64,000 nt of DNA. Origin: an uncultured Bacilli bacterium. GTDB lineage: Bacteria > Bacillota_I > Bacilli_A > RF39 > UBA660. The notes under the pieces were generated by a model. It was given only the letters and a program-made list of their open reading frames with translations, had not been told where the DNA came from and did no database searches. Position numbers and translations under genes: made by a program. This document shows, piece by piece, positions 6,416 through 59,703 of this stretch. Numbering within the stretch: position 1 is the stretch's first letter; each line of letters opens with the position of its first letter. The stretch spans positions 31,001-95,000 of the forward strand of contig CANQCR010000005.1 of NCBI GenBank assembly GCA_947589735.1. The letters run 5' to 3'.

Positions 6416-6442
6416 GGGATAGAAAATTAATTCTATCCTTTA
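6416..6442 (-). terminator. terminator at end of the 1260-aa secreted protein gene
   Basis: GGATAGAA-TTAATT-TTCTATCCCTTTTT read on minus strand. Confidence 0.7.
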
Positions 6443-9400
6443 ATTTCTTGGACAACCAACGAAATTACCATTTTTATCTGGTTTAACATAAGCTAGGGCT
6501 CTTGATCTAGCTGTTGAGTTATGTCCTACACAGCTACCCTCTAACCTTGTTCCACCGTGATCATTTTTAAATGTATCATTAGCTAACAATGATAAGAATC
6601 TACTAGCACAATATTTATAAACATCTTGTCCTTCGATACTTGTATCAGTTGTTGCATTTAAGCCACTATAATTAACACAATAGTATCCAATATAACCAGG
6701 AAGATTACTAATATTTTCTATGTCGTTATCATTATCAAACATCCGCATTTCTGTGTATGGATCAGCAGCATTGTATGTTCCTGATGCAGATCTTGCTTGA
6801 CGATTTAATTCTCTAATATAGCGAATATTAGTTGTATTTAATTCAAGAGAATACATTGGTTCTTTTCGGTAGATGTCTTCACTTAATACATCTTCTACTT
6901 CAGAATCTGTAAGTTTAGCCCAGTTACGACCTCTTATACGGCCTGTTCCTAAAATACCAGGGAAGGCATTATCAACAACGTTTTTATTTGGCGTGATATT
7001 GGTTGAAGAGATTAAATCAATAACTCTAAAGACAACATCAATATCTCTAATATAACGTCTTCTATTATATGGATTATCTGGATCATCGTTAGGATCAGGG
7101 TCACCAGATTCAACTTTATCATCATCTTTTGGATCACAATATGCTGGAGAATCATCGGTTAAAACTAAATTACCCATTGAATCTTCTTCATATTTACAAT
7201 CGTTACCGAATAATTCATTAATAATTCTAAATGGACAACCATATTTTAATTTTGTTGAACCAAAGACTTTTTGTAGTAACATATCAAAGTGGGTTTCAGC
7301 TATAGCTCCATTATTTTCTTCTTCGTCACCAAAATCTTTAGTTGATATACCAGCTTTACCATTTATATTAGTTTTAGTACCTAAATGGTCAAATGTTAGT
7401 TTTAACAAGCCATCAAATTTTCCATCGCCGTTACCATTTTTATCTACCCAATCAGCACCATATGTACCATTTGGAGTCATAAAGGCGGTTGGAAGACCAT
7501 AACCTAACCATTTATACCAAGGAAGACCTTTAGATCCGGCTGGTTTTTTAACAATATCTTGTTTAGCTTCTGGTTCACCTGTTGACTTATTACCATACCA
7601 GTTTAATGGGTCATGGTAAACAATATTATATGTTGCATAAGTTGTTAGATCATCTGGAGTTAAATATTTGTCACAGTTAGGGTCGTTATTACCACATGTT
7701 ACCCCAACGATATCTTGAGTTTGAACAGGGTGAAGCCAATCGATACTAACATCATGATTTACATCGGAATATTGATATTCTTCTAGTGGATCAACATAGT
7801 CGATTTGTGTAGTATTACGATCGCCAACTTGGGCAGTCTCAATCCAATCATCGACGCTATAATCAACTCTAATATTACTACAGTTTGGTTTATATTGTGA
7901 GCCATCAGCGAGTAATATATTATCTTGACGAACAACACACTTCTTAGTGAATGTAATTGTACCTAAAACATTATTTTTAGTATCACGTTTTAAGCCCCAT
8001 TTGAAGATAGTACCAGCTCTAATAGCAGGATTATCACTATCATCTGTTCCTGTTCCTACTTCACCTGGAAGAGAGAACTTAACTTGTTCACTACAATATA
8101 AGTTACAAACATCGTTGCCAGAACCTACTTTTTTAGCCCAGCTTCCAACAATACCTGTTTGATTTCCATTTGCATCAAGGTTAGTATAAGCAAATCCTTT
8201 TTGCCAACATTTTATAGCCTCTTCGTTATTTTCCCCAAAAACATAGTCTTCTAAAACAATATTTTTATTTTCTGATTCACAGGTGTTATCAATATCTTCG
8301 TTAGCTGGACAATTTATGATTTCTTCACATCTTGGACCATCACGACCAACAACTGTCCACCAACGTTCTAGTAATAATAACGTATCTTGACCTGCTTTAT
8401 CTGTACCATAAAACTTACTTACTGCATTGTGTAACCAGTTGAAATACTCTTTATAGTCGGCTTGTAATGCTGCATCAGTTTCTCGATTTTTATAAGCGAT
8501 TTTGTGAACGCGGTTAACATTATCTTGAACACATTGAACAATAGGGCATCCTGTTCCGCCATTTGAGGTATATTCAGGATAGAAATATGGATTTAAACGT
8601 CGTTGTGTTTTCATATAAATAGTGTGAAATTCTGATTGCTCATAATTAGCTTCTGTTATCATTTGCTCGCCCTTAACATCATCTTTAGACCAAGCAATTA
8701 AAGCTTCTTCATAACTACCATAGCGTTCATCTTTAGAAATGGTACATCTATCACCAGGGTTTTTACCGCAGGCATCATATATTGCTCTTGCTTTTTGACC
8801 ACAAGTAATTTTAGATCCGCAGTTGAAGCCTTTGTTTTCTGTGTGGTCATATAAGAATTTTGCTTGTTCGTAAGTATAGTGTTTAACGAACCAAAGTCTT
8901 TCATCGCCCCAAGCACTGAAATCTTTTTCTAGAGAGTCATATAAATCTTTATCTCCTCGTTGTAAAGATTTTTGAAGGGCTGTTGCACATGGGTCAGGTG
9001 TGAACCAAAAGTTTAAAAGACTAATGGTATCTTTTCTTTGGTAGAATTTCTTTAAAGTAGAGCTTGCTATTGAAGATCCAATAGGCAATTTTGGAGAAAG
9101 ACTATCAGGGTCTTCACTACTCCATCTGTCATCGTCGCCGTCCCCTACAGGCCATGATTTTTCTTGAGCAGCTGTTGATAGATTAATATTCCATCCTTTT
9201 TGAGGTCCTACGGAAGCAAGTATATAGTTACAAGCTGTTGGAGGATTATATGGATCGTGAGAATAATATCCAAATTGTTCACCAACACCATTATCACACA
9301 TCCACATTACTTCTGTAACTGATCCGGCCATATATAAAGTCCTATTGTTTTGATTCCAAGTTCGTAATACTAAATCTTGTTCAAATAAGATGAAAGTATT

Positions 9401-10222
9401 TTGAACTGACCAGTATGGTAGGGCGGCTGCGTCAATTTGTTTTTTACCATCTGTTCTACCAGCAACCCAACCATAACCATAGAAAGAACGTGTGAATATA
9501 TTATTGAATACTGTATAGTTTGGTACAGGATAATTTTTACAATAACTAGAATCCTTATCTGGTTGTTGTTGACAGTTAAGATATTTAATTATCGCAAAGT
9601 TCATATTTTGTGGTTGATACCAAGAAGCTGTATCTGTGATCCATCTATCACTCCACTCTTCGTACCAATCCCAAGCACCCAAAGGAAGTCCTAAGACATC
9701 CATTTTTAAATATGGACCTTTGGTAGTTACGCCGTATAAACCATTACTTGAACTACTTCCTTTAAGATCGTTTTTACCAAGTATTTCTAGTTTAGTAGGT
9801 TTATTGTTATTTCCACCATTACCATTACCTGTTGTAAAATAGGCGGTATTACCTTCGTTTCCAAGGCCTTCATCTTTAGCACTTTTCCACCAATAATCAT
9901 ATGAAACTGATGGAAGTGTTCCACTACCAGAAACTTCGTCAAGTTTCCCATCCTTGTTACTATCTGTTTCTCTCCGGCACATTTCTCCAGTTGCGGGGTC
10001 GTAGTTACAACGTTTACCAGTTTCTTTATCTACGATGGTTATTCGAAAGCCAAGTCCAAATCCGGTACACCAACCAGTTTTACAACTATTATCCGTCTGT
10101 CCGGTACCTCCACCTCCGTGATCATCAGATGCATTTAACTGAGTCGTATTAACCAAAAACAGTAGTGCGAAACACATTGTATAAATAAGATATTTTAATT
10201 TCTTTTTCATTTTATCACCCAT
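6440..10222 (-). CDS. large Cys-rich secreted protein of unknown function (1260 aa)
   Basis: N-terminal signal peptide MGDKMKKKLKYLIYTMCFALLFLVNTTQLNASDD; about 30 Cys; EF-hand-like loops DSNKDGKLDE and DKNGNGDGKFDG. Confidence 0.75.
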   Translation of the reverse strand: MGDKMKKKLKYLIYTMCFALLFLVNTTQLNASDDHGGGGTGQTDNSCKTGWCTGFGLGFRITIVDKETGKRCNYDPATGEMCRRETDSNKDGKLDEVSGSGTLPSVSYDYWWKSAKDEGLGNEGNTAYFTTGNGNGGNNNKPTKLEILGKNDLKGSSSSNGLYGVTTKGPYLKMDVLGLPLGAWDWYEEWSDRWITDTASWYQPQNMNFAIIKYLNCQQQPDKDSSYCKNYPVPNYTVFNNIFTRSFYGYGWVAGRTDGKKQIDAAALPYWSVQNTFILFEQDLVLRTWNQNNRTLYMAGSVTEVMWMCDNGVGEQFGYYSHDPYNPPTACNYILASVGPQKGWNINLSTAAQEKSWPVGDGDDDRWSSEDPDSLSPKLPIGSSIASSTLKKFYQRKDTISLLNFWFTPDPCATALQKSLQRGDKDLYDSLEKDFSAWGDERLWFVKHYTYEQAKFLYDHTENKGFNCGSKITCGQKARAIYDACGKNPGDRCTISKDERYGSYEEALIAWSKDDVKGEQMITEANYEQSEFHTIYMKTQRRLNPYFYPEYTSNGGTGCPIVQCVQDNVNRVHKIAYKNRETDAALQADYKEYFNWLHNAVSKFYGTDKAGQDTLLLLERWWTVVGRDGPRCEEIINCPANEDIDNTCESENKNIVLEDYVFGENNEEAIKCWQKGFAYTNLDANGNQTGIVGSWAKKVGSGNDVCNLYCSEQVKFSLPGEVGTGTDDSDNPAIRAGTIFKWGLKRDTKNNVLGTITFTKKCVVRQDNILLADGSQYKPNCSNIRVDYSVDDWIETAQVGDRNTTQIDYVDPLEEYQYSDVNHDVSIDWLHPVQTQDIVGVTCGNNDPNCDKYLTPDDLTTYATYNIVYHDPLNWYGNKSTGEPEAKQDIVKKPAGSKGLPWYKWLGYGLPTAFMTPNGTYGADWVDKNGNGDGKFDGLLKLTFDHLGTKTNINGKAGISTKDFGDEEENNGAIAETHFDMLLQKVFGSTKLKYGCPFRIINELFGNDCKYEEDSMGNLVLTDDSPAYCDPKDDDKVESGDPDPNDDPDNPYNRRRYIRDIDVVFRVIDLISSTNITPNKNVVDNAFPGILGTGRIRGRNWAKLTDSEVEDVLSEDIYRKEPMYSLELNTTNIRYIRELNRQARSASGTYNAADPYTEMRMFDNDNDIENISNLPGYIGYYCVNYSGLNATTDTSIEGQDVYKYCASRFLSLLANDTFKNDHGGTRLEGSCVGHNSTARSRALAYVKPDKNGNFVGCPRN

Positions 10223-24441: not shown

Positions 24442-27400
24442 ATGAATAACATTAAGAAAATATCTTTAAAAATATTGGTGTTAACGATATGTATTTCTTT
24501 AGCTGTTATAAGCTTTGGCAATAAAAGTTTATTGACGATGATGGGATTTATCAATAATAAATCTTATAGTTCATCTAATTTTAATCGTATTTCTGATCCT
24601 AGTACGATGGATTCATATCAAAATCTTTTACTTAGTGATGCGGATGGTTCAAGATATGCTGGCCGTATTTGGTCTGATAAGTCTGTTTTTACTAATGATT
24701 TAACTTTAGATATGGCAACTGACGGATATGACGGTAAAGTCAAACTTAATACCGATTTTTTAAATGTTTTCTCAGCTTTAGGATCTAGTCAGGCTTGGAT
24801 AGGTTTACCACCAACTAAAACCGTTATTGTTATAGATAATTCTGGTTCGATGTATTCTAATAATAAAACAGATTGGTCTAAAACCCGTATGGATAAAACC
24901 GTTAGCGCTGTTAACGAATCTATTGATAAGTTAATGCGCGCTGGCGCTTTTAATGAAGTGTCTGTTGTTCTTTTTGGTAACAGTGGTAAAAATGGAGTAA
25001 AAGATGGTGATTATCATACAGCAACAACTATTGTTCCAATGGGGCATTATGAGGTAAGTGATGATGAAGAACAACCATATCATTATCTTGATGCCGGCTG
25101 GGCAGAAGCAGGGGTTACTGATTACACCCAGTTTAGTGAACCTATCAAAGATCCAAGTCATGCTAATACTGCTGGTGGCTTTGTTTTTGTTGATAAAAGG
25201 TATGTCAATGATACTTTTAAAGTTGATGAGAATATACGACTTACTGATAATGGTATAAAAAGATATGATACATATCGTAATGGAACAACGAATATTAATG
25301 CTGGTACTTATGCGGCATTTAAAGCTTTATTACAAGAGGAAACTAAAGTTAAGGTTGCGGGAATTACCTTTAATTATATTCCTTCCGTTGTTGTATTATC
25401 TGATGGTGCAGCTACCGATATGTTGGAGGGATCATGGTCTAATCCTACCCTACAAGCTATGGGCTTTACAAATGATCGAGGTAATAAAAAAGCTAGTTAT
25501 ATCAAGGCGTTTGAAGATCCACAAGGAACCTGGACATGGGATTGGAATATGTACATTGATTTAATAGAAAAAGATGGAGTTCCAACATTAGAACAAATTG
25601 GTTATGGAGATGGAACATTAACAGATGGCCATATTAAAGACTCTAACCCTGGTGCTGTAGGTGAACAAAAGTTAAAAGAGTTTGCTAATGAGGTAAGATC
25701 TTCACAAGCAGCGATTATATTAACAACAATTTTAAATGGTTCATATATGAGAGCTCAGGTAGAAAAAAAGTTTGGAGGAAATTGTAAATTTTATACAGTT
25801 TCTGTTGATATGAATAATCCAGAAGAAGTAAAACTACCTGATCCAGAAGAATGGTTTAGTGGTACAGCTAATTATACTATAAATACTAGTTCAGTACTTA
25901 TGAACCCCAACGATTATTTTAATACTGATTGGTTAAAAGAAAAGGGTTATATCAAACAAGATGCTGATGTAAACAATTTAAAAGATGATGATATTGTTTA
26001 TGAACCATATACGGTTGGTTATGAAATAATATCAGCCATTATTGATGCTATTAATGCTTATGATGAATTCAAAAATGATAGTAATTCCTATGATGATCGG
26101 GGAAAAATAAATAAATATGTCATTTACGATGAAGCAAAAGGCCTTTGGGATGATATGAAAGATGAAAGAGCTACTGTTAATGGTGTTGAATATGATGCAA
26201 CTGTTCCAATAGGACACAACCATTCTAATGCTTATTTTGTATCAGAAAGAAAAGATGTATCATTTGATAACTTAGATCCTGGTGATACAGCCAATAATCC
26301 TTACGGATTAAGTAATGCTGATTTAGAATATGACTATGTAACTAAATCTTATTATGCATCTAGTAAAGAAGAAGCAGCAGATAAGATTGCTGAAACATTT
26401 GATGCCATCGTTGAAGATATTGTTTCTAGTGCTTTCGAGCCCATTAGTGGTATTAATGATATTGGTATCGAAGATTCAATGACTTTTATGGATCCACTGG
26501 GACAATATATGGATGTCAAGAATAAGGCAATTACCGTTAGTGGTGAAACCTATGATATGGGTTTACTTCTTTTTGGAAAAATTCATGGTATTACAAAGAC
26601 AGCTGTATACGATTATAATTTTAATATTAAGCATCGTGGACCAAGTCATGATAGTGAAGATTTATCATTACCTTTTGAAATGGGTTGGTATAATAAAGAT
26701 GGCGAATTTTTAGGGACTAGCGGTAGCTGGGATAATGGTGATACTTATTACGTTGATAGTGAAACTGTTCGAAAGTACGTTCCAAATCTTTTAGAAGAGG
26801 GAAGTATGACTGATCAGCAAAAGAACACTATCTATACTTTGTATCGTTTTATAGAAGATAGTAGAAATGATGAAGTTCATAACCCTTGTTATAATGATAA
26901 AAAGGTCAAATATAAATTAAGTGATATTCGGATATGGGTCGAAGACACTGAAAATTTTGAAGATGAAAATAATGATGCAGCTATTGATTTAGGCTTTGAT
27001 CGCGCTATTTATGTCAATATTCCAGTAAGTGCCCTACCTATTGAAGTAGCAAATATTACGATAGGAACTGACGGGTTTGTCTCATCATACACAACTAATT
27101 TAGGTAATAAAACGATAACGACACCATTTAGACTTTTCTATGGTGTGGGTTTACAAGATTCTATTTTTACGGATGATGGCTTAAATGTAGATATGGCCAA
27201 AATTTCTCCTGAATATCTACAAAAAAATAAAATTGGCGATGTTGTTTATTTCTATTCTAACTATTATAGTAACACGTTATATAAAGATTATGTTACAGAC
27301 ACAAGCGCTGAAAGAACTAGAGGCGATGCTGTCTTATCTTTCTCACCAAATGAAACGAATCGCTTCTATATGTATCAAAATCCGCTACCTTTATATAGTT

Positions 27401-30400
27401 TAGGTGCTGATGATGGTGACCTTGAAACTAATGGAACATATAAAGATGTCCCACTACTTACGGATGATGAGTTTAATGTCTTTAAAGCTACTCATCAAAA
27501 AATAACTGATGCTCAAACATTAAGTCCTGATAAATGGTACTATGTTATACTTGATTATTACTTGCCAGGTAGAAAGGACCTTGTTCATGTTGCTGTATCA
27601 AGATTAGGTAAAGAATTTGGTTCCGGAATAGCTGGTGGAAGTATTGAGGCAGGAAACTACTTAGCTTGGTATGATGAAGTAAATGACACATGGGTTCAAT
27701 ATGACCAAGGAAAAGAAAAGCCTAGTGGTGATAATTGGGTAATTGCAACACGTCCTGGTGGTTTACGTGTTGGTGATATGGCTCAAAGTTTAAGACCAAA
27801 AACAACTAACCGAACAAGTACAGCTTATAATTATTATCTACCAACCATTAGTGCGACGACGGGAACGACGTCTAATGATAGTAATATTATCATTAATTCT
27901 TATCTAGGAAATAATGGTCGCCTTGAGGTTAACGATTCTTTGTTATTTATGACTAAAGAAGTAGAAACTAATGAGGTTGGTAAGCAAAAAATTGATAATA
28001 ATAAAGAGTTTAATTTTAGTGTTAAGTTAGATGACCATGAAGGCGATTTTGAAGCTTTAAAAATGTACAAAAATCCTTATAGTAATGAGTGGCAACTTCG
28101 TTTAAAAACTATAGATATTTTGACTGACAATGGAGGATTTTTACAAAACGCTAATAATGATTTAACTGTTTATCGTAAAAATAATGGCCGAAGTTATTAT
28201 GTTTATATTGGAACTAATAAAGCCAAAAGTGTCAGCGATGAAAATGTCTTTAGGCTATATCAAGCACCAGATAGTGAAGATTATGTTGAATTAACATTAT
28301 CAGGTATGACCACTTATGTTGAAAATCCTGACGAGATAAGTAGCAGTTTAAAGACTGATTTAAATAAATATAAAAAATATGACGATGAACATACCCTTGG
28401 ATCATTGGATTTCTGGGTAAAGAAAGCTTATTTAATCCCTGTTATTGAGGTTGAAAATGGTACATGGGATGGAACAACTTCTGGATATGACTCATTAGAT
28501 GAGTTTGTTATCGCTCATCTAAATCCATATTCATATGGCGCTAGTGAATTATCATCACCTTATGCAACCCAAACAGCCTTTTTAACCCAAAAAGTATATT
28601 TTGGGTATAGTGACGATAAAAAGCCAGGAGATAAGCCTGAAGGTTGGACCGATGATGATTGGAAAAATCAAGAAGTTAATGTTGCTCATATTACATTAAA
28701 GAATAATGAAGGCTTAATGTTCTCCGGATTAAATAGCGACTCGACATATGAAATCGAAGAACTTCTTACCGAGTCTGAACATCGCGAAGGATATTTCTTT
28801 GACCGCATCCATTTAGCGGAAAAAGATACGGCTACAATCGAGGGTACGAAGGTAATCGGTCAAGTTAACGATAATTACTTCGATGAAGTTGACTACATTA
28901 ATACTTTCTATGCCCCAGTTGATTTAACGATTCAAAAAAATGTTGTTGGAGCTTTAGCTGATCAAGAAAAGGAATGGACATTTGATATTTCTTTAACTCC
29001 TAATACCAATGTTACATTAGAAGATAGTTATGAAACTTTAAAGCATAAAGCAAATGGTGAAGATGAGACTGGTAGTATCTCTTTGATGAAGCAACCTAGT
29101 GGTAATTATACAGGTAGTGTTACTTTGAAGCATGGTGAAAAAATAACACTTAAAGGTATACCGCAAAATACGCAATATGAAGTTACGGAAACTTTAGCTA
29201 ATCGTGATGATTATGTAACAACGGCTGTTAATGCTAAAGGAACATTAGTAGATAATGAGACTAGTGTTACGTTTGAAAATGCTAAATATTCTAAACATGA
29301 TATTGTTTTATCAAAAGAAGTACTAGGTGCTTTAGGTGATCAAGAAAAAGAGTGGGCATTTAATATCAACTTTACGCCACAAGAGAATATTCCATTTGCT
29401 AAAAGTTATGCTTATCTTGGAAGCAAAGATGGAATGATGGAACTTACCGATAATCACGATGGAAGTTATACAGGAACTATTAGTCTAAAACATAATGAAA
29501 GTGTGACAATTAAAAATATTCCTGAAGGTACAAGTTATGAAATCGTGGAAAAAGATGCTAGCCAAGATGGTTATATAACTTTAAAAAATAATGAAACAGG
29601 ATTATTAAAAGATGAACCAAGTGTTAATGTTAAATTTACAAATATAAAATATTCCCGTCATCAATTAAAATTAGAAAAAATTGTAACTGGCGGTGCTGGC
29701 GATAAAGAAAAAGAATGGACCTTTAAAGTTACCTTTACGCCTGCGGAAGATGTTATATTTGATACGACTTATCATTATGTAGGCGGTCATGCTGCTAATG
29801 GTGTGACTGATCATGCTGATGGAGATTTACATTTAACGAAACAAGGAGATAGTTATACAGGAACTATTAAATTAAAACATGGTGAAAGTGTAACAATTGA
29901 AAACATTCCAGAAAGGACAAAATATAAAGTTGAAGAGGTAGAGGCTAACCAAGAAAAATATTATACGATGGCAACGCTTAATACCGAAGGAGAATTAACT
30001 AAAGATCTTGAAACGGTACGCTTTACTAATACGAAATTAAGTAAGCACGATATAACTATTTCTAAAAAAGTAACCGGTGCTTGGGCTGATGAAGAAAAAG
30101 AATGGACCTTTAAAATTATCTTAAAGCCTTTAGAGTATGTCATTTTAGATAAAGAATATCAATTTGATGGAACTAAGAGTGGAAAGATATCATTCACTAG
30201 TAATACAGATGGAACTTACACCGGAGAAGTATTACTAAAACATAATGATACGGTAACAATTAAAGGTTTACCAGAAGAAACAAAGTATAAAGTTGAAGAA
30301 GAAGAAGCTAATACTGATGGATATACAACTCGGGTAACAGGCGATGTTGAAGGTACTTTGACGTATGGAAAAGATAATCCTAGTATTTCCTTTAACAATA

Positions 30401-32058
30401 TCAAATTATCGGAACATAGTTTAACAATTTCTAAAGAAGTCCTTGGTAGTGATGGCGATCAAGACAAGGTTTGGAATTTTATAGTTAAGTTTACTCCTCA
30501 AGAGGGTGTTACACTATCGGATAGCTATCCAATTACGAGTGGTAATTTTGTATCTGAAATAGTGCCATCAAATGATGCATATATAAAGTTACAACATAAT
30601 AGTGATGGTACAAGTAGTGCCCATGTAACACTAAAACATGGTCAATCTTTGACAATTAATAATTTGCCACAAGGAACGCAGTATGAAGTGGTAGAAGAAG
30701 AAGCTAATACTGATGGATATGTTACTTGGACAACAGGCCAAGAAAAAGGCACACTTATTGATACTGATACATTTATGGTTAAGTACAATAATAAAAAGCC
30801 ATCAAAACATTCTTTAACAATATCTAAAGAAGTAGCCGGTGGAGCCGGAGATAAGAATAAAGAATGGACTTTTGAAATAACTTTAACACCGGATGATCAT
30901 ATAACATTATTAGATGAATATTTATATGATGGATCTAAAACAGGTCTAATTGCATTTGCAAAACAAAGTGACGGTAGTAGTGTTGGAACAATTACTTTAA
31001 AACATAATCAAACAGTTACTATTAATGGTTTGCCAGAAAAGACGACTTACCGTGTTAGAGAAAAAGAAGCTAATCAAGACGAATATATAACTCATGTAAC
31101 TGATGAAGATGGCATATTAAATGATGATGTAAAAGTATCATATAAGAATACAAAATTATCAAAACACAATATTATCATTAGTAAAGAAGTATTTGGTAAT
31201 TTAGGCAATAAAGAAAAAGAGTGGACGTTTAAAATAAAGCTTGTAGCGCCAAGTATCAAAAAATTAGATAAAAAATATGCCTATGTTTTGACAAAGAAAG
31301 TTGTTCAAGATGATATTGAAACTGAAGAAGTTGAAGAGGTTGAAGAACTTGAAGAAGGAACAATCGATGTCGTAGAAAAAGATGGTTATAATGAGGCTAC
31401 TATAAAATTAAAACATAATGAAAAAATAGAAATAAAGGATTTGCCAGAAGGTACGGAATATGAAGTAACCGAAGAAGAAGCTAATCAAGACGACTATGTA
31501 ACTATTACTACGGAAAACACTAAAGGAATCTTAAATGGTGATACTCCATTAGTTAAGTTTAGTAATAAAAATTATTCAAAGCATAGTATCAGTATTGAGA
31601 AAAAACTAGAAGGAACTAATGTTGAATCCGAAAGAGAATGGACCTTTAAAATTACTTTAAAACCAGATAAAGATGCCCCATTTAAAGAAGCATATGCATA
31701 TACCGGTCTTGATGAAGATGGCATAATTAATTTTACGCCAACAGATGATGAAGAAGCATATGAAGGAACAATTACCTTAAAAGGTGGCGATAAAATTGTT
31801 ATAGAAGATATACCTTATGATACTTTATATGAGGTAATTGAAGAAGAAGCTAATCAAGATAAATATCAAACAACTTATACCGACAACGAAGGAATAGTTA
31901 ATGATGATATTGTCGTAACTATAACAAATAAAAGAAATATTGAAATCCCATTAACTGGAGATCAAATAAAGAAGTTTATAATTATTTTTGAGATGGCTTT
32001 AATCACTCTTTTAAGTGGTATACTTCTATGTAGAAAATTTCTAAAGAGTAAGTGCTAG
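24442..32058 (+). CDS. giant surface protein: signal peptide, vWA (MIDAS) domain, eight isopeptide-type Ig-like repeats, LPXTG-like (IPLTG) anchor
   Basis: TVIVIDNSGSMYSN MIDAS; repeated (S)KEV.G...EKEWTF...LKHGE.VTI..(I/L)P.GT.Y.V.EE.AN; C-terminal IPLTGDQIKKFIIIFEMALITLLSGILLCRKFLKSKC. Confidence 0.9.
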   Translation: MNNIKKISLKILVLTICISLAVISFGNKSLLTMMGFINNKSYSSSNFNRISDPSTMDSYQNLLLSDADGSRYAGRIWSDKSVFTNDLTLDMATDGYDGKVKLNTDFLNVFSALGSSQAWIGLPPTKTVIVIDNSGSMYSNNKTDWSKTRMDKTVSAVNESIDKLMRAGAFNEVSVVLFGNSGKNGVKDGDYHTATTIVPMGHYEVSDDEEQPYHYLDAGWAEAGVTDYTQFSEPIKDPSHANTAGGFVFVDKRYVNDTFKVDENIRLTDNGIKRYDTYRNGTTNINAGTYAAFKALLQEETKVKVAGITFNYIPSVVVLSDGAATDMLEGSWSNPTLQAMGFTNDRGNKKASYIKAFEDPQGTWTWDWNMYIDLIEKDGVPTLEQIGYGDGTLTDGHIKDSNPGAVGEQKLKEFANEVRSSQAAIILTTILNGSYMRAQVEKKFGGNCKFYTVSVDMNNPEEVKLPDPEEWFSGTANYTINTSSVLMNPNDYFNTDWLKEKGYIKQDADVNNLKDDDIVYEPYTVGYEIISAIIDAINAYDEFKNDSNSYDDRGKINKYVIYDEAKGLWDDMKDERATVNGVEYDATVPIGHNHSNAYFVSERKDVSFDNLDPGDTANNPYGLSNADLEYDYVTKSYYASSKEEAADKIAETFDAIVEDIVSSAFEPISGINDIGIEDSMTFMDPLGQYMDVKNKAITVSGETYDMGLLLFGKIHGITKTAVYDYNFNIKHRGPSHDSEDLSLPFEMGWYNKDGEFLGTSGSWDNGDTYYVDSETVRKYVPNLLEEGSMTDQQKNTIYTLYRFIEDSRNDEVHNPCYNDKKVKYKLSDIRIWVEDTENFEDENNDAAIDLGFDRAIYVNIPVSALPIEVANITIGTDGFVSSYTTNLGNKTITTPFRLFYGVGLQDSIFTDDGLNVDMAKISPEYLQKNKIGDVVYFYSNYYSNTLYKDYVTDTSAERTRGDAVLSFSPNETNRFYMYQNPLPLYSLGADDGDLETNGTYKDVPLLTDDEFNVFKATHQKITDAQTLSPDKWYYVILDYYLPGRKDLVHVAVSRLGKEFGSGIAGGSIEAGNYLAWYDEVNDTWVQYDQGKEKPSGDNWVIATRPGGLRVGDMAQSLRPKTTNRTSTAYNYYLPTISATTGTTSNDSNIIINSYLGNNGRLEVNDSLLFMTKEVETNEVGKQKIDNNKEFNFSVKLDDHEGDFEALKMYKNPYSNEWQLRLKTIDILTDNGGFLQNANNDLTVYRKNNGRSYYVYIGTNKAKSVSDENVFRLYQAPDSEDYVELTLSGMTTYVENPDEISSSLKTDLNKYKKYDDEHTLGSLDFWVKKAYLIPVIEVENGTWDGTTSGYDSLDEFVIAHLNPYSYGASELSSPYATQTAFLTQKVYFGYSDDKKPGDKPEGWTDDDWKNQEVNVAHITLKNNEGLMFSGLNSDSTYEIEELLTESEHREGYFFDRIHLAEKDTATIEGTKVIGQVNDNYFDEVDYINTFYAPVDLTIQKNVVGALADQEKEWTFDISLTPNTNVTLEDSYETLKHKANGEDETGSISLMKQPSGNYTGSVTLKHGEKITLKGIPQNTQYEVTETLANRDDYVTTAVNAKGTLVDNETSVTFENAKYSKHDIVLSKEVLGALGDQEKEWAFNINFTPQENIPFAKSYAYLGSKDGMMELTDNHDGSYTGTISLKHNESVTIKNIPEGTSYEIVEKDASQDGYITLKNNETGLLKDEPSVNVKFTNIKYSRHQLKLEKIVTGGAGDKEKEWTFKVTFTPAEDVIFDTTYHYVGGHAANGVTDHADGDLHLTKQGDSYTGTIKLKHGESVTIENIPERTKYKVEEVEANQEKYYTMATLNTEGELTKDLETVRFTNTKLSKHDITISKKVTGAWADEEKEWTFKIILKPLEYVILDKEYQFDGTKSGKISFTSNTDGTYTGEVLLKHNDTVTIKGLPEETKYKVEEEEANTDGYTTRVTGDVEGTLTYGKDNPSISFNNIKLSEHSLTISKEVLGSDGDQDKVWNFIVKFTPQEGVTLSDSYPITSGNFVSEIVPSNDAYIKLQHNSDGTSSAHVTLKHGQSLTINNLPQGTQYEVVEEEANTDGYVTWTTGQEKGTLIDTDTFMVKYNNKKPSKHSLTISKEVAGGAGDKNKEWTFEITLTPDDHITLLDEYLYDGSKTGLIAFAKQSDGSSVGTITLKHNQTVTINGLPEKTTYRVREKEANQDEYITHVTDEDGILNDDVKVSYKNTKLSKHNIIISKEVFGNLGNKEKEWTFKIKLVAPSIKKLDKKYAYVLTKKVVQDDIETEEVEEVEELEEGTIDVVEKDGYNEATIKLKHNEKIEIKDLPEGTEYEVTEEEANQDDYVTITTENTKGILNGDTPLVKFSNKNYSKHSISIEKKLEGTNVESEREWTFKITLKPDKDAPFKEAYAYTGLDEDGIINFTPTDDEEAYEGTITLKGGDKIVIEDIPYDTLYEVIEEEANQDKYQTTYTDNEGIVNDDIVVTITNKRNIEIPLTGDQIKKFIIIFEMALITLLSGILLCRKFLKSKC
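28915..31938 (+). repeat. eight divergent protein-level tandem repeats of about 120-140 aa each
   Basis: Repeat starts at LTIQKNVVGALADQEKEW, IVLSKEVLGALGDQEKEW, LKLEKIVTGGAGDKEKEW, ITISKKVTGAWADEEKEW, LTISKEVLGSDGDQDKVW, LTISKEVAGGAGDKNKEW, IIISKEVFGNLGNKEKEW, ISIEKKLEGTNVESEREW. Confidence 0.9.
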
Positions 32059-52055: not shown

Positions 52056-52081
52056 AAAGGAATTGTCGGATTCCTTTTTTT
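52051..52081 (+). terminator. intrinsic terminator after AbgT-like gene
   Basis: AAAAAGGAAT-TGTCGG-ATTCCTTTTTTT. Confidence 0.75.
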
Positions 52082-52121
52082 GTGCTATGATAAAAAGCAA
52101 TTTAAACTTATCGGGAAGTGA

Positions 52122-53759
52122 ATGATGAAGAATAAAGTGCGTTTTTATGCCGGACTTTTAGCCGTCGTTATGACAGGAAATATTGGCCTTACTTTATGTA
52201 AGATGCATTTTAGAAGTCCTGAAAATATTAAATTAGTAGAACGTCAGATGGAAGATAGTGATTATCCTTATTTTCATCGTGCTCCTAATAAGATAGCTAC
52301 AGTAGATGATATCGTCTTAACCATTGATGAAAAGACGGGCTCTGATCTTACGAAGGCTAAAGCTTGGGCCCAAAAAATCAAAAAGGTGGGATGTGTTTCA
52401 GATGATATTATAGATACATTAAATATTGATGATTACCTTTTTGATGCTCTAACTGATTCTACTATTACGGGATTAGTTATGAAGCATGATAATATGCTTT
52501 TTTATAACCCTTATAAAGATACTATTAATTGGACTAATCTTGCTCTTAAAATTAAAATTAATGGCACGCTACTTACCACTTTCGATATCCTTAATTTAGT
52601 TAAAAAAGAAAATCATGATAAGTATAAAGGTATTAAAAATATGAGCTTAGATGATATTAATATTGTCTTAAATCAGTTAAAAGAAACGGTCTTAGAAACT
52701 AAAAAGAGATATCATGATTATGATATGGCTCATCTTGCGTGCCTATTATCCCATATGGCTTTTACTTATCACGATAGCGCGGATAGTGAAGCTTTAGGGG
52801 TTGTAGCTATGACATCTTTTAAAGATATCGGTTGGATTTTAACAAATGATGGTAGGTATCCCGCTTTAGAAAGTTTTAAACCAATTAATATTCATGAGTT
52901 TAAACATCTTTTATCAGCTGCTTGTCCTGATGAATATAATAATCAAGTGTATTCAACATTCACTGGAATCAATTATTATGAAGATGATACCTTAATGTTT
53001 AATTTTATTGAGGAAGTAACAGCGGAAGAATATGCGATGAGCTTAACTGGGCGTGACATTTTAGCTAGTTTTGAAGAAAAAGAAATTTTAGATAATATCC
53101 GATTTGTTTTAAGCTTACAAGATGATTATCAAAAAGATGGTTTTTTAAGATATAGTCTATCTAAAAATCCAATTGCCTTATTAGAACAATTCCCGGTCTT
53201 TGATGAAGAAGAGTTTATCGGTGTAGTTAAAATGCTTGTGGCCTATGATTTAATGTTGGGTTTGTTTCCTAATGATTTATATGATAGCGCTTTAGAACTT
53301 AATGAAGAGATTGACCATTATAGTTTTATTAGTGCGATTATTGATTACGCTAATATAAGCCTTACTGATTTATTTTTTACTAACTTATTAGTTTTAAATG
53401 AGACTAAGGATGTTCCAATCGATTATAATATGTATTTAATTCGTCTCTTCGAACAACGAATGAGTGTTGGCTTCTTTGCTTTACTTCAAACCCGTGGATA
53501 TCATATTACAATGGATAGCTATAATGCTTTATATAGTCAAAAGTTAGATGTCTTCTTAACCTATTTAGCTGAAAAATATGATTTGGCTCCTTATAAGACT
53601 TATAGTGAGTATCAACTACCAAAAGAATATGATTATCCAGCTTTTGTATCGAAAGACGTAATAGAACTATATGACAACATTCGTAATCGTCGCTATAATT
53701 TAGAAGCGATAAGAGAAGTTGTCAACGATGAATTAGCTAAATATTTAGTATATAAATAG
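52122..53759 (+). CDS. putative secreted zincin-like metallopeptidase, tandem paralogue 1
   Basis: N-terminal hydrophobic signal; HEFKH (52893-52907) and downstream FIEEVTAEE; paralogous to next ORF. Confidence 0.6.
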   Translation: MMKNKVRFYAGLLAVVMTGNIGLTLCKMHFRSPENIKLVERQMEDSDYPYFHRAPNKIATVDDIVLTIDEKTGSDLTKAKAWAQKIKKVGCVSDDIIDTLNIDDYLFDALTDSTITGLVMKHDNMLFYNPYKDTINWTNLALKIKINGTLLTTFDILNLVKKENHDKYKGIKNMSLDDINIVLNQLKETVLETKKRYHDYDMAHLACLLSHMAFTYHDSADSEALGVVAMTSFKDIGWILTNDGRYPALESFKPINIHEFKHLLSAACPDEYNNQVYSTFTGINYYEDDTLMFNFIEEVTAEEYAMSLTGRDILASFEEKEILDNIRFVLSLQDDYQKDGFLRYSLSKNPIALLEQFPVFDEEEFIGVVKMLVAYDLMLGLFPNDLYDSALELNEEIDHYSFISAIIDYANISLTDLFFTNLLVLNETKDVPIDYNMYLIRLFEQRMSVGFFALLQTRGYHITMDSYNALYSQKLDVFLTYLAEKYDLAPYKTYSEYQLPKEYDYPAFVSKDVIELYDNIRNRRYNLEAIREVVNDELAKYLVYK

Positions 53760-53855
53760 AATGATTATTTAAAAACTTCTAGATATGACAATCTTATTTT
53801 TATCTAGCTCTAATGAGTATTAATATGAAAGGTGCATATAACATATAAAAGGAAT

Positions 53856-53884
53856 TTGTAAGATTCCGTTTTGGATGTTATAAT
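53856..53884 (+). promoter_or_regulatory. sigma-A-type promoter of paralogue 2
   Basis: TTGTAA, 17 bp, TATAAT (53879-53884) with TG extension. Confidence 0.65.
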
Positions 53885-53910
53885 AGTCAACACTTTAGGA
53901 GGTTGGTTGT

Positions 53911-55647
53911 GTGAAAAGAAGAGTATTAGCATTTGTTTCAGCACTAACATTATCTTTAAATAGCGTTGGTATATCCCTAATTAAAAATGATAAACCCGTT
54001 ACTTTATCTAGCCCATTATATATTGAAGAACCAGCTGGATATTGTCGTTACTTATCAAGTGAAACAATACCCTTACCATATTCTAGGAGCACTTCCGGTG
54101 ATGATAGCCCATACTTCCAGAAGGGTGAAGATGACTTAAAAACCATTGAAGATCTTAGATTGACGCTTGAAGAAAAAGGCTTGGCAAGATTAAGTCTTTC
54201 AGCTAGAACAGCGATTGACAATATTTCTAAAACGCTTGTCAATGATATTAACTATGACTATATCTCGGCTTTAGGGGCTGACGATTTAAGCATCTTTTTG
54301 TCACCCTTTCTTACGGATGTTGTTGATAAACATAGTAATGAATTTTTATACGATGTGGAAAATGACGACATCTATTGGGAACAACTGCCAGAATTAATTT
54401 ATGTTAACAATTTACTCTTTATCGGCAAGGATTGTCAATATAAAGGCATCGATAAAAAAGATTCTCCTTATGAATCACTATCAAAAGAAGATATTATATC
54501 TGTTTTAAATCAATTAGAAGATTTTGTTCATTATATAAAGGATACATACCCTAATTATGACATGAAACACTTAGCCTGTGTTTTATCACAGTGCACCTTT
54601 TTATATGACCATTTTCCTAGTAATGCTATTGCAGCAACTGGTACTTCTGGTATTCGTTGGAATGTCATTAATGGTAAGTATCCTAATCTTAGTTCTTTTA
54701 TTACAACCAATGAACATGAGTTTAAACATTTACTATGTGCTGAATGTGAAGACGAAAATGGATATAGTGGCCAAAATAATGAATATTATTGGGCATCATT
54801 TACAGGTGTTGAAGGCTTTTTAGATAGTCGTTTATCAATGACCTTTATTGAAGAAGCAACAGCTGAAGAACTATCTGCCCAAATGACTAATCGCGATATG
54901 GATTGTTATCTAATTAATGAAGAGATTCTTAATAATATTCGCCTCGTTTTAAGCATGCAAGATGACTATGAACCAGATGGCTTTCTAAAATATGGTTTAC
55001 TTCAAAATCCTATTGCTTTAATTCAACAATTGCCTCTTTTAAATGTTCAAAAATATAGTTTTGCCGACAATGTTAGAATGTTAGCTGCCTATGAGGATAT
55101 GATTGGTAATGGTCCTTATGATTTTATCTTCGCTATAAATAAATTAAAAGGTTGTGAGGGCTTCCCTTTTGATAAATCAGCAATAGATGTTTATAAAAGC
55201 TTACTTAATTATGCTCAAATTCAACTATCAAGAATGTTTTACACTAATCTAATTGTTCTAAATGAGACTAAAGATGTGCCACTTGATTACAATTTATTTA
55301 TGTTACGATTATTTGAAAAAAGAATGGATATCGCTTATAGAGCTATCAATTTTTATTTAAAGAAAATAGTTCCAGATATTGATTTAACAGATTATGAAAA
55401 TTATGCATCTTATCATTTGGATAATTTTCTTTCTTATCTATCTAATACTTTTCACATGAGTATATCTAGGTTAAATGAATTATATCGTGAATATAGCCTT
55501 GATGATGATGTAACTTATCCTAAGTTTTTAAGCGAAGATGTTGTTAATCTAAATGAGTTTTTACGGTGGCATGATTTTAGTGAAGACGAATTAAACGAAA
55601 AAATGGAAAAGTCGGTATCTGGCCTTGTGTATAAGAATAATTATTAA
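53911..55647 (+). CDS. putative secreted zincin-like metallopeptidase, tandem paralogue 2
   Basis: Signal-like MKRRVLAFVSALTLSLNSVGISLI (GTG start); HEFKH (54715-54729) and FIEEATAEE; paralogous to previous ORF. Confidence 0.6.
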   Translation: MKRRVLAFVSALTLSLNSVGISLIKNDKPVTLSSPLYIEEPAGYCRYLSSETIPLPYSRSTSGDDSPYFQKGEDDLKTIEDLRLTLEEKGLARLSLSARTAIDNISKTLVNDINYDYISALGADDLSIFLSPFLTDVVDKHSNEFLYDVENDDIYWEQLPELIYVNNLLFIGKDCQYKGIDKKDSPYESLSKEDIISVLNQLEDFVHYIKDTYPNYDMKHLACVLSQCTFLYDHFPSNAIAATGTSGIRWNVINGKYPNLSSFITTNEHEFKHLLCAECEDENGYSGQNNEYYWASFTGVEGFLDSRLSMTFIEEATAEELSAQMTNRDMDCYLINEEILNNIRLVLSMQDDYEPDGFLKYGLLQNPIALIQQLPLLNVQKYSFADNVRMLAAYEDMIGNGPYDFIFAINKLKGCEGFPFDKSAIDVYKSLLNYAQIQLSRMFYTNLIVLNETKDVPLDYNLFMLRLFEKRMDIAYRAINFYLKKIVPDIDLTDYENYASYHLDNFLSYLSNTFHMSISRLNELYREYSLDDDVTYPKFLSEDVVNLNEFLRWHDFSEDELNEKMEKSVSGLVYKNNY

Positions 55648-56871: not shown

Positions 56872-56896
56872 AAAAAGGTTCAAAATGAACCTTTTT
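56872..56896. terminator. bidirectional terminator between convergent ychF and 56895 ORF
   Basis: AAAAAGGTTC-AAAAT-GAACCTTTTT. Confidence 0.8.
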
Positions 56897-57443
56897 ATAT
56901 TCGATATGTTTTTTCTTTGCCACTTCGTACATCTAAAATTATTTTTTGATGCGTTCTTTGGATGACTTGTTCTAGTGTTCTTAAATTACTGAAGCGAAGA
57001 GTATCTAGTGTTTGTTCCATTCTTTCTCTTTCACTTAAATAAGCAATAAGCTTTTCATAAGTAGCTATATTATCTTCACTAGTGTGAAGTTCAAAGCGTC
57101 TTTCATAGCCATAAGTTAAATCATAGATAAAGAAACTAGCGCCTTCTAAATCGAAGTCAAATGATATAAAATTATCGAGCGTTAAGACCGCTTCTCGCCA
57201 TACAATAAAAGCGGGCTCTTTCGTATATCTTTGTAAAACAAAATGGCCGTCGGTTAAAAACTTTTCTTTAACATCCTTGTGATATAACTTACCGGCGGAA
57301 ATTTTAAAGCAACTATTGACATCATCATGAACAAAAAGCTGACACTTTAGATGAGCTTTATTTAATTCTTTTTTATAGTCATACAAAGGATCAGTTTTTG
57401 CATACATTTGTGGCGCAACTACCATATACATCACCTGTGGCAA
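56895..57443 (-). CDS. hypothetical protein
   Basis: 182-aa ORF on minus strand between ychF and rpsF, ends at a shared terminator. Confidence 0.6.
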   Translation of the reverse strand: MPQVMYMVVAPQMYAKTDPLYDYKKELNKAHLKCQLFVHDDVNSCFKISAGKLYHKDVKEKFLTDGHFVLQRYTKEPAFIVWREAVLTLDNFISFDFDLEGASFFIYDLTYGYERRFELHTSEDNIATYEKLIAYLSERERMEQTLDTLRFSNLRTLEQVIQRTHQKIILDVRSGKEKTYRI

Positions 57444-58586: not shown

Positions 58587-58618
58587 AAAAGTAAGATCAA
58601 TAAAGATCTTACTTTTTT
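58587..58618. terminator. bidirectional terminator
   Basis: AAAAGTAAGATC-AATAAA-GATCTTACTTTTTT. Confidence 0.8.
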
Positions 58619-59703
58619 GTTTTTTGATGTCCCCATTCTGGTTCGTCGTCATAATCAGGTATTAAAGAGTCACTAAGGGATTCATGGTAATTACCAAATA
58701 AAGACGTTTGAACATTTTCTTCATCATCATCAAGCATTAATTGTTCATCACTTAAAACGTCGTCAAACAAAGATGTTTGTCCTTCAACTTGATCTTTTTT
58801 GGTTCTTTTCTTAATCGTTTTCTTCTTTTTAGCTAAAGGATAAACAATTTCTTCTTTATTTTGTGCAAACTCTCCTAATTCTAAATCCAGTTTACTACCA
58901 AGCCACATAATAAAGTTATGAAACTCTAAATATTTAACAGCTATAGTACCATCCTTGTTCTCTTTAAAAGTTAATTCGGTTGCATCATCAACTCTATCAT
59001 AGGAACTAACAACCTGGTACTTAATTCTTAAGAAAAACTCTTTAGCATTGTTATAGGCACTTCTCGTCTCACCGGGAGTATGTGTTTTATGACTAGCATA
59101 AGCTAGCATACTATCTAATAAACCTCTAACTACAGCCATTTGTTGATAGCGATAGCGATATGATTGTAAAGCTTTCTTTTGCTTTTGATATTCACTATAA
59201 TTATAATGTTCAGCATTTTCTATTTTGTGGATTTTATTTTCTAAAGCATCAAAAGCAAAATCATTATATGGCCCTTCACTGCGATATTTTGAACATAATG
59301 ATTCGATAAAATCATAATCATCTAAATGATCTTGAAGAGTTCTTATAACTACTTTATCGTATTTAAATAATGGCAAATAAGCTTTATAGGCAAGTCCAAA
59401 TCTTAAGTTACCATTAGGCTTAAAATCAATGCCATCAAGCGCTTTCTTATCTTGCCTTACCTGACATAGTTGAAGTTTAATACCACGCGCTTCACTAGGC
59501 GTTAATACCTCAGAATTGATAAGTTCGGCGATTAAACTTTCTCGACTAGTATAATGCGTTGTAAAAAAGTCAATTTTATCTAGACGATAACGCTTTGATT
59601 TTAATTTAGCAAAACGCTTAATTTTGGTCCAGTCGATAATAATAGGCTTTTCACCACTTTTACCGACAATAACATAACTATTATATCGTGTTTTCTTTTC
59701 CAT
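58609..59703 (-). CDS. hypothetical protein with two QTSLF motifs in an acidic C-terminal tail
   Basis: 364-aa ORF; ...EGQTSLFDD...NVQTSLFGN...; divergent from nothing obvious, abuts gpsA. Confidence 0.7.
   Translation of the reverse strand: MEKKTRYNSYVIVGKSGEKPIIIDWTKIKRFAKLKSKRYRLDKIDFFTTHYTSRESLIAELINSEVLTPSEARGIKLQLCQVRQDKKALDGIDFKPNGNLRFGLAYKAYLPLFKYDKVVIRTLQDHLDDYDFIESLCSKYRSEGPYNDFAFDALENKIHKIENAEHYNYSEYQKQKKALQSYRYRYQQMAVVRGLLDSMLAYASHKTHTPGETRSAYNNAKEFFLRIKYQVVSSYDRVDDATELTFKENKDGTIAVKYLEFHNFIMWLGSKLDLELGEFAQNKEEIVYPLAKKKKTIKKRTKKDQVEGQTSLFDDVLSDEQLMLDDDEENVQTSLFGNYHESLSDSLIPDYDDEPEWGHQKTKK

What the first reader, a model, noticed from the sequence alone, without database searches (positions are those of the whole stretch)
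52122..55647. Tandem pair of secreted proteins with a conserved HEFKH ... FIEE(V/A)TAEE signature: candidate uncharacterised metallopeptidase family
Seen: two adjacent ORFs (545 and 578 aa) align along most of their length (YPYFHRAPNKIATVDDIVLTIDEKTG / SPYFQKGEDDLKTIEDLRLTLEEKG; YDMAHLACLLSHMAF / YDMKHLACVLSQCTF; NLLVLNETKDVPIDYNMYLIRLFEQRM / NLIVLNETKDVPLDYNLFMLRLFEKRM). Both begin with a hydrophobic signal-like segment. Each keeps HEFKH (52893-52907; 54715-54729), a perfect HExxH, and an acidic FIEExTAEE about 35-45 residues downstream. Established: HExxH followed by a distal Glu is the zinc-binding arrangement of gluzincin metallopeptidases. Inference: they are exported zinc peptidases. I do not recognise the family.
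Basis: partly seen in the sequence, partly recalled or inferred. Interest (0 to 1): 0.65.

Follow-up and report, generated by a model that had tools for sequence, protein, structure and literature searches.

The report
Unnamed exported zinc-protease family, tandem pair
Two neighbouring genes of an uncultured gut bacterium encode exported proteins that keep every residue of a zinc-protease active site but match no catalogued protease family, so they probably define a small unnamed family of extracellular proteases whose target is unknown.

Summary
Two adjacent genes (52122-53759, 545 aa; 53911-55647, 578 aa) are 37% identical along almost their full length. Each has HEFKH at the stated place and FIEExTAEE downstream.

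I found 24 intact members (about 15-86% identity), all in MAGs of one bacterial family. HExxH and a downstream ExxA (Glu 24-56 residues after the second His) are invariant in all 24. The only two copies lacking part of the site are frameshifted. An AlphaFold model puts HEFKH on one helix and the Glu on a second, after a small beta sheet. PDB fold matches of the compact core are led by gluzincin peptidases (selecase, clostridial collagenase, abylysin, M1), none significant alone. All members have a hydrophobic N-terminus and three a lipobox, so export is likely. Two cysteines are also invariant, probably a disulfide.

Pfam, NCBIfam and PDB sequence searches find no family. The genes are accessory: six congeners have AbgT directly followed by ychF here.

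Best reading: a new, lineage-restricted, surface-anchored gluzincin endopeptidase family, duplicated at least twice. Substrate, zinc binding and activity are untested. It is a new family of a known kind, not a new mechanism.

The parts
52063..52091 (+). promoter-like site of the first gene (TTGTCG-17-TATGAT, TG-extended), inside the terminator-like hairpin after AbgT
   Evidence: consensus match, not above shuffles by itself; a like element lies upstream of the group-A genes of three relatives
52122..53759 (+). first exported gluzincin-like peptidase (P0001, 545 aa)
   Evidence: ORF; orthologue in L042 86% identical, dN/dS 0.18
52740..52742 (+). Cys207, invariant cysteine 1
   Evidence: invariant in 24 of 24
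52893..52907 (+). HEFKH of the first protein (His258, Glu259, His262): two proposed zinc ligands and the catalytic base
   Evidence: sequence; invariant in 24 of 24
52923..52925 (+). Cys268, invariant cysteine 2
   Evidence: invariant in 24 of 24
53013..53015 (+). Glu298 of FIEEVTAEE, proposed third zinc ligand
   Evidence: invariant column
53856..53884 (+). promoter-like site of the second gene (TTGTAA-17-TATAAT, TG-extended), in a hairpin resembling the one before the first gene
   Evidence: alignment score 42; best of 500 shuffles 34
53911..55647 (+). second exported gluzincin-like peptidase (P0002, 578 aa, GTG start, AGGAGG just upstream)
   Evidence: ORF; AlphaFold model pLDDT 69.7, pTM 0.74
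54577..54579 (+). Cys223, invariant cysteine 1
54715..54729 (+). HEFKH of the second protein (His269, Glu270, His273), on predicted helix 264-275
54745..54747 (+). Cys279, invariant cysteine 2, six residues after the second His
54853..54855 (+). Glu315 of FIEEATAEE, proposed third zinc ligand, on predicted helix 311-326

Best explanation
The two genes are paralogous, surface-anchored, extracytoplasmic zinc endopeptidases of the gluzincin type, and belong to a family not described in the libraries searched. The N-terminal segment directs export and tethers the protein to the membrane, as a lipoprotein in some members and by an N-terminal helix in others. The core is a zincin: a small sheet, an active-site helix with HExxH and a second helix with ExxA. 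His269, His273 and Glu315 (second protein) would hold one Zn2+, and Glu270 would activate the zinc-bound water to attack the peptide bond. A Cys223-Cys279 disulfide probably staples the core, and an all-helical C-terminal half would shape the substrate cleft. The loop between HExxH and the Glu helix differs in length by over 30 residues between members, which suggests different substrates for the copies. Each gene seems to have its own promoter. Shown here: the conservation, paralogy, lineage restriction, accessory status and selection. Inferred: export, zinc site, disulfide, proteolysis, and that the substrate is an extracellular gut protein or a protein of the cell's own surface.
For: H, E, H, E and A of HExxH/ExxA are invariant in 24 of 24 intact members down to about 15% identity. 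HEFKH is on predicted helix 264-275 and Glu315 on helix 311-326, after strands 229-233, 241-243 and 247-251. The trimmed model of a compact homologue gives the same order: strands 87-91, 100-103, 106-109, HExxH helix 118-134, Glu helix 152-167. Its PDB matches are led by selecase (probability 0.69-0.89 for the seven best chains) and clostridial collagenase G (0.60), with PprI, tricorn F3, abylysin and EryP also in the top 20: 13 of 20 rows are zinc peptidases or zincin-fold proteins. An M78 profile aligned to this family at the HExxH helix, while YchF, IleRS and M48 profiles did not. N-terminal hydrophobic segments in all and a lipobox LTGC in three members; in L021 the two invariant cysteines are the only ones. 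dN/dS 0.18.
Against: No Foldseek match reaches E<=0.001; the best in favour is 0.099, and the full-length model gave only weak zincin hits among helical noise. AlphaFold confidence is moderate (pLDDT 69.7), with most of the HExxH-Glu loop below 50. No biochemical data. An invariant His141 and Tyr147 have no assigned role.
Confidence: 0.85

Rival explanations
1. Exported zinc peptidases that act on the bacterium's own surface proteins (shedding or maturing adhesins), rather than on host or dietary protein. This is a variant of the best explanation that differs in the substrate.
For: Members are predicted to be membrane-tethered. The window encodes a 2538-aa protein with a VWA domain, eight DUF7601 and six DUF5979 matches, a plausible surface substrate. 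Cell-surface proteases that release adhesins are known in other Firmicutes (general knowledge, not tested here).
Against: No gene-neighbourhood link: the pair lies about 20 kb from that gene and its relatives sit in unrelated contexts. Co-occurrence was not tested.
Confidence: 0.25
2. Zinc-binding but non-proteolytic surface proteins (pseudo-peptidases or zinc scavengers).
For: Activity has not been shown. The three proposed ligands could bind metal without catalysis.
Against: The catalytic Glu of HExxH is as invariant as the ligands (24 of 24); a pseudo-peptidase would not need it.
Confidence: 0.07
3. HExxH and EExxA are structural motifs of a helical surface protein and there is no zinc site.
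For: Whole-protein Foldseek is dominated by helical noise with no significant hit; HExxH alone occurs by chance, e.g. in IleRS.
Against: The combination is invariant across the deepest splits while most of the sequence is not; the compact-core model matches several different zincin families.
Confidence: 0.05
4. The pair serves the AbgT transporter next to it, releasing p-aminobenzoyl-glutamate or peptides for uptake.
For: The pair lies directly downstream of an AbgT-family gene (PF03806), as do the copies of two relatives.
Against: Six congeners keep AbgT without the pair, a third relative keeps a copy beside ychF without AbgT upstream, and most family members have other neighbours.
Confidence: 0.04

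Closest known systems
Minigluzincins (selecase 4QHF-4QHJ, abylysin 4JIU)
   Same: Best fold matches of the compact core: small sheet, HExxH helix, Glu helix.
   Different: Those are proteins of about 105-110 residues; this is an exported 470-626 aa protein with a long helical C-terminal half. E-values 0.1-1.2, 12-20% identity, no sequence match.
Clostridial collagenases, peptidase domain (MEROPS M9; ColG 7ZBV, ColH 4AR1)
   Same: Secreted gluzincins of Firmicutes; second best fold match.
   Different: No Pfam or PDB sequence match in any of 16 members; E=0.099, TM-score 0.30.
M1 aminopeptidases (tricorn F3 1Z1W, EryP 7V9N, IRAP)
   Same: Weak fold matches of both models; HExxH plus Glu on a following helix.
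   Different: M1 has the Glu 18 residues after HExxH and a GxMEN motif (general knowledge); here the Glu is 24-56 residues away and no Pfam hit is found.
M78 (ImmA/IrrE, PprI)
   Same: Profile aligns at the HExxH helix; PprI is a weak fold match.
   Different: hhalign probability 5.6% over 22 columns only; M78 proteins are mostly cytoplasmic (general knowledge).
M60-like/PF13402 mucin-targeting peptidases of gut microbes (PMC3267712)
   Same: Same ecological type: extracellular, surface-anchored zinc peptidases in the disposable pan-genome of host-associated bacteria.
   Different: No PF13402 match and no glycan-binding module in the window proteins.
IgAse of Thomasclavelia ramosa (M64, PMC12237041)
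   Same: Extracellular zinc peptidase of a gut Firmicute.
   Different: IgAse is a metzincin with HExxHxxxGxxD; that motif is absent here.

Membership tests
Gluzincins (clan MA(E)) | HExxH zinc-binding motif conserved and on a helix | tested here: met
   24 of 24 intact members; helix 264-275 in the model and helix 118-134 in a homologue's model
Gluzincins (clan MA(E)) | downstream Glu as third ligand, on a second helix | tested here: met
   Glu315 invariant, on helix 311-326; position and helix only, metal binding not tested
Gluzincins (clan MA(E)) | zincin fold | tested here: inconclusive
   order of elements fits; 13 of the top 20 PDB rows are zincins but the best E is 0.099
Gluzincins (clan MA(E)) | ligands converge on one zinc ion; proteolytic activity | not testable with these tools
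   model coordinates not available; needs structure and assay
Metzincins (including M64) | HExxHxxGxxH/D or HExxHxxxGxxD | tested here: not met
   the sequence after HEFKH is LLSAACPDE / LLCAECEDE; no such motif in the alignments
Any Pfam or NCBIfam peptidase family | profile match | tested here: not met
   no peptidase family for P0001 and P0002 up to E=10 in Pfam or NCBIfam; among 16 members only one chance-level peptidase name, the aspartic Peptidase_A3B, E=0.014 in one member
M48 (HtpX) | profile similarity over the catalytic domain | tested here: not met
   hhalign probability 0.2%, not at HExxH
M78 (ImmA/IrrE) | profile similarity over the catalytic domain | tested here: not met
   22 columns around HExxH only, probability 5.6%
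Minigluzincins | small catalytic domain of about 110 residues alone | tested here: not met
   members are 469-626 aa with an N-terminal hydrophobic segment; core fold similarity only
M34 (lethal-factor type) | profile similarity over the catalytic domain | not tested

The most novel reading that the evidence does not exclude
The family is a new MEROPS-level peptidase family: exported gluzincins that arose or diverged beyond recognition within one lineage of genome-reduced gut Bacilli, were repeatedly duplicated and lost, and carry a variable loop next to the active site that tunes each copy to a different host, dietary or neighbour protein.
Probability: 0.6. Interest if true: 0.55.

Novelty: new variant of a known kind. 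Interest (0 to 1): 0.45.

Why it matters
Uncultured, genome-reduced gut Bacilli have small gene sets and few known ways to act on their surroundings. A family of surface proteases that sequence libraries miss would be a concrete, testable handle on what they do to host or dietary protein. The alignment gives a profile with which such proteins could be annotated, and a compact homologue (24-25 residue loop) that is a good target for a structure.

Tried and rejected
A single-protein scan of genome contigs found nothing; a mixed alignment succeeded. Viral, phage and plasmid collections gave no homologue. Hits L028-L034 are isoleucyl-tRNA synthetases and were dropped; L012 and L013 and L039 are marginal and were not used. 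Whole-protein Foldseek was uninformative, so a trimmed compact homologue was modelled instead. PHROGs matches were weak and unnamed. hhalign against M48 gave nothing and against M78 only the HExxH helix; M56 was collected but had too few members to use. A second HExxH in the most divergent group (HEIMH, L023) is lost in L027 (HKIMH), so it is not a second site. Functional coupling to AbgT was considered and rejected. That the pair is one gene split by a frameshift was rejected: these are two complete paralogous ORFs.

Full report
What is there. Two complete ORFs lie head to tail between an AbgT-family transporter gene and ychF: 52122-53759 (545 aa) and 53911-55647 (578 aa). They are paralogues: 37% identity over 554 columns, E=1e-94. 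The window genome has these two copies and no third.

Relatives. A search of 12 genomes of the genus found relatives in three besides the window's own. Of 385 genomes of the order, 13 have true members once seven isoleucyl-tRNA synthetase hits are set aside; the family sample gave four more-distant genera. Beyond that, class (395 genomes) and phylum (392) samples gave nothing outside the family except one marginal hit at E=7.5e-4. A scan of one genome for each of 84,980 species gave 12 loci, all in MAGs titled uncultured Bacilli or Tenericutes. Phages, plasmids and viral contigs gave none. These MAGs look like the uncultured order RF39 (my inference, not tested; most RF39 are predicted to keep a peptidoglycan wall, PMC10868615).

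The active site. Over 24 intact, distinct members the columns invariant in all are H141, Y147, I154, A222, C223, L225, H269, E270, H273, C279, E315 and A318 (P0002 numbering). Five of these twelve are HExxH and ExxA. The distance from the second His to the Glu varies from 24 to 56 residues, so the motif pair is kept while the loop between is not. Two copies lack part of the site: L043, broken by a deletion and frameshift between HEYKH and the Glu, and L052, frameshifted with the HExxH-Glu core missing. Both look like decayed genes (or assembly errors), not intact homologues without the site. The window's first gene and its orthologue in a related species differ with dN/dS 0.18, so the gene is under purifying selection.

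Fold. AlphaFold with 14 sequences gives pLDDT 69.7 and pTM 0.74 for P0002; HEFKH lies in helix 264-275, Glu315 in helix 311-326, and three strands precede. The whole model finds no significant PDB or viral match, although M1, M61 and M32 peptidases recur among the weak ones. A trimmed model of a homologue with the short loop matches selecase best (probability 0.69-0.89 for the seven best chains), then collagenase G (0.60), and further down PprI, tricorn F3, abylysin and EryP; 13 of the top 20 rows are zincins, from several separate families, though the eight selecase rows are one protein and the best E-value is only 0.099. I take this as support for a zincin core, not as proof.

Export. Every member has an N-terminal hydrophobic stretch, and three have a lipobox LTGC. 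Cys223 and Cys279 are invariant, and in L021 (the same protein as in L051) their counterparts are the only cysteines; in an exported protein this points to a disulfide.

Gene context. In six congeners AbgT is followed directly by ychF, so the peptidase genes are accessory at this site; one relative has only the first gene, one a broken copy, and one a single copy beside ychF without AbgT upstream. Other members have unrelated neighbours. Each window gene has its own promoter-like site in a hairpin; the two upstream regions resemble each other (alignment score 42, best of 500 shuffles 34), and a like element precedes the group-A genes of three relatives. That fits a duplication of gene plus promoter, though the paralogues are old (37% identity). 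A second tandem pair occurs in L048 and L050; the tree groups its copies apart from the window pair, so duplication happened at least twice.

Comparison with known families. No Pfam, NCBIfam or PDB sequence match. It works like a gluzincin; it is not, by any test here, a member of a named gluzincin family. The metzincin motif is absent. hhalign finds only the HExxH helix in common with M78 and nothing with M48. The M34 family was not compared, since its type member is a listed toxin.

Verdict. This is a probable new family of exported gluzincin endopeptidases confined to one lineage of gut bacteria: worth naming and testing, but a known kind of enzyme.

Noticed in passing
window 24442-32058 (+): 2538-aa protein with a VWA domain, eight DUF7601 and six DUF5979 matches; looks like a giant surface adhesin or pilin-like protein.
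   Followed up: no
window 6440-10222 (-): 1260-aa ORF without any Pfam match.
   Followed up: no
window 58609-59703 (-): 364-aa ORF between ssb and gpsA without a Pfam match.
   Followed up: no
window 56895-57443 (-): 182-aa ORF between ychF and rpsF, no Pfam match; found in three congeners at only 28-32% identity although its neighbours ychF and rpsF are about 75-87% identical, so it evolves fast.
   Followed up: partly
L048 5272-9467 and L050 3364-7455: Independent tandem pair of the same family, with a 234-aa gene between the copies; the second copy has a much shorter HExxH-Glu loop (25 residues).
   Followed up: partly
L023-L027: Most divergent group (15-19% identity, about 470 aa), in five genomes of one genus, next to a gene for a small lipoprotein-like protein with MMNTPTK.
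   Followed up: partly
window 54331-54351 (P0002 His141 to Tyr147): H-x5-Y stretch about 128 residues before HExxH, with His and Tyr invariant in all 24 members; no role assigned.
   Followed up: no
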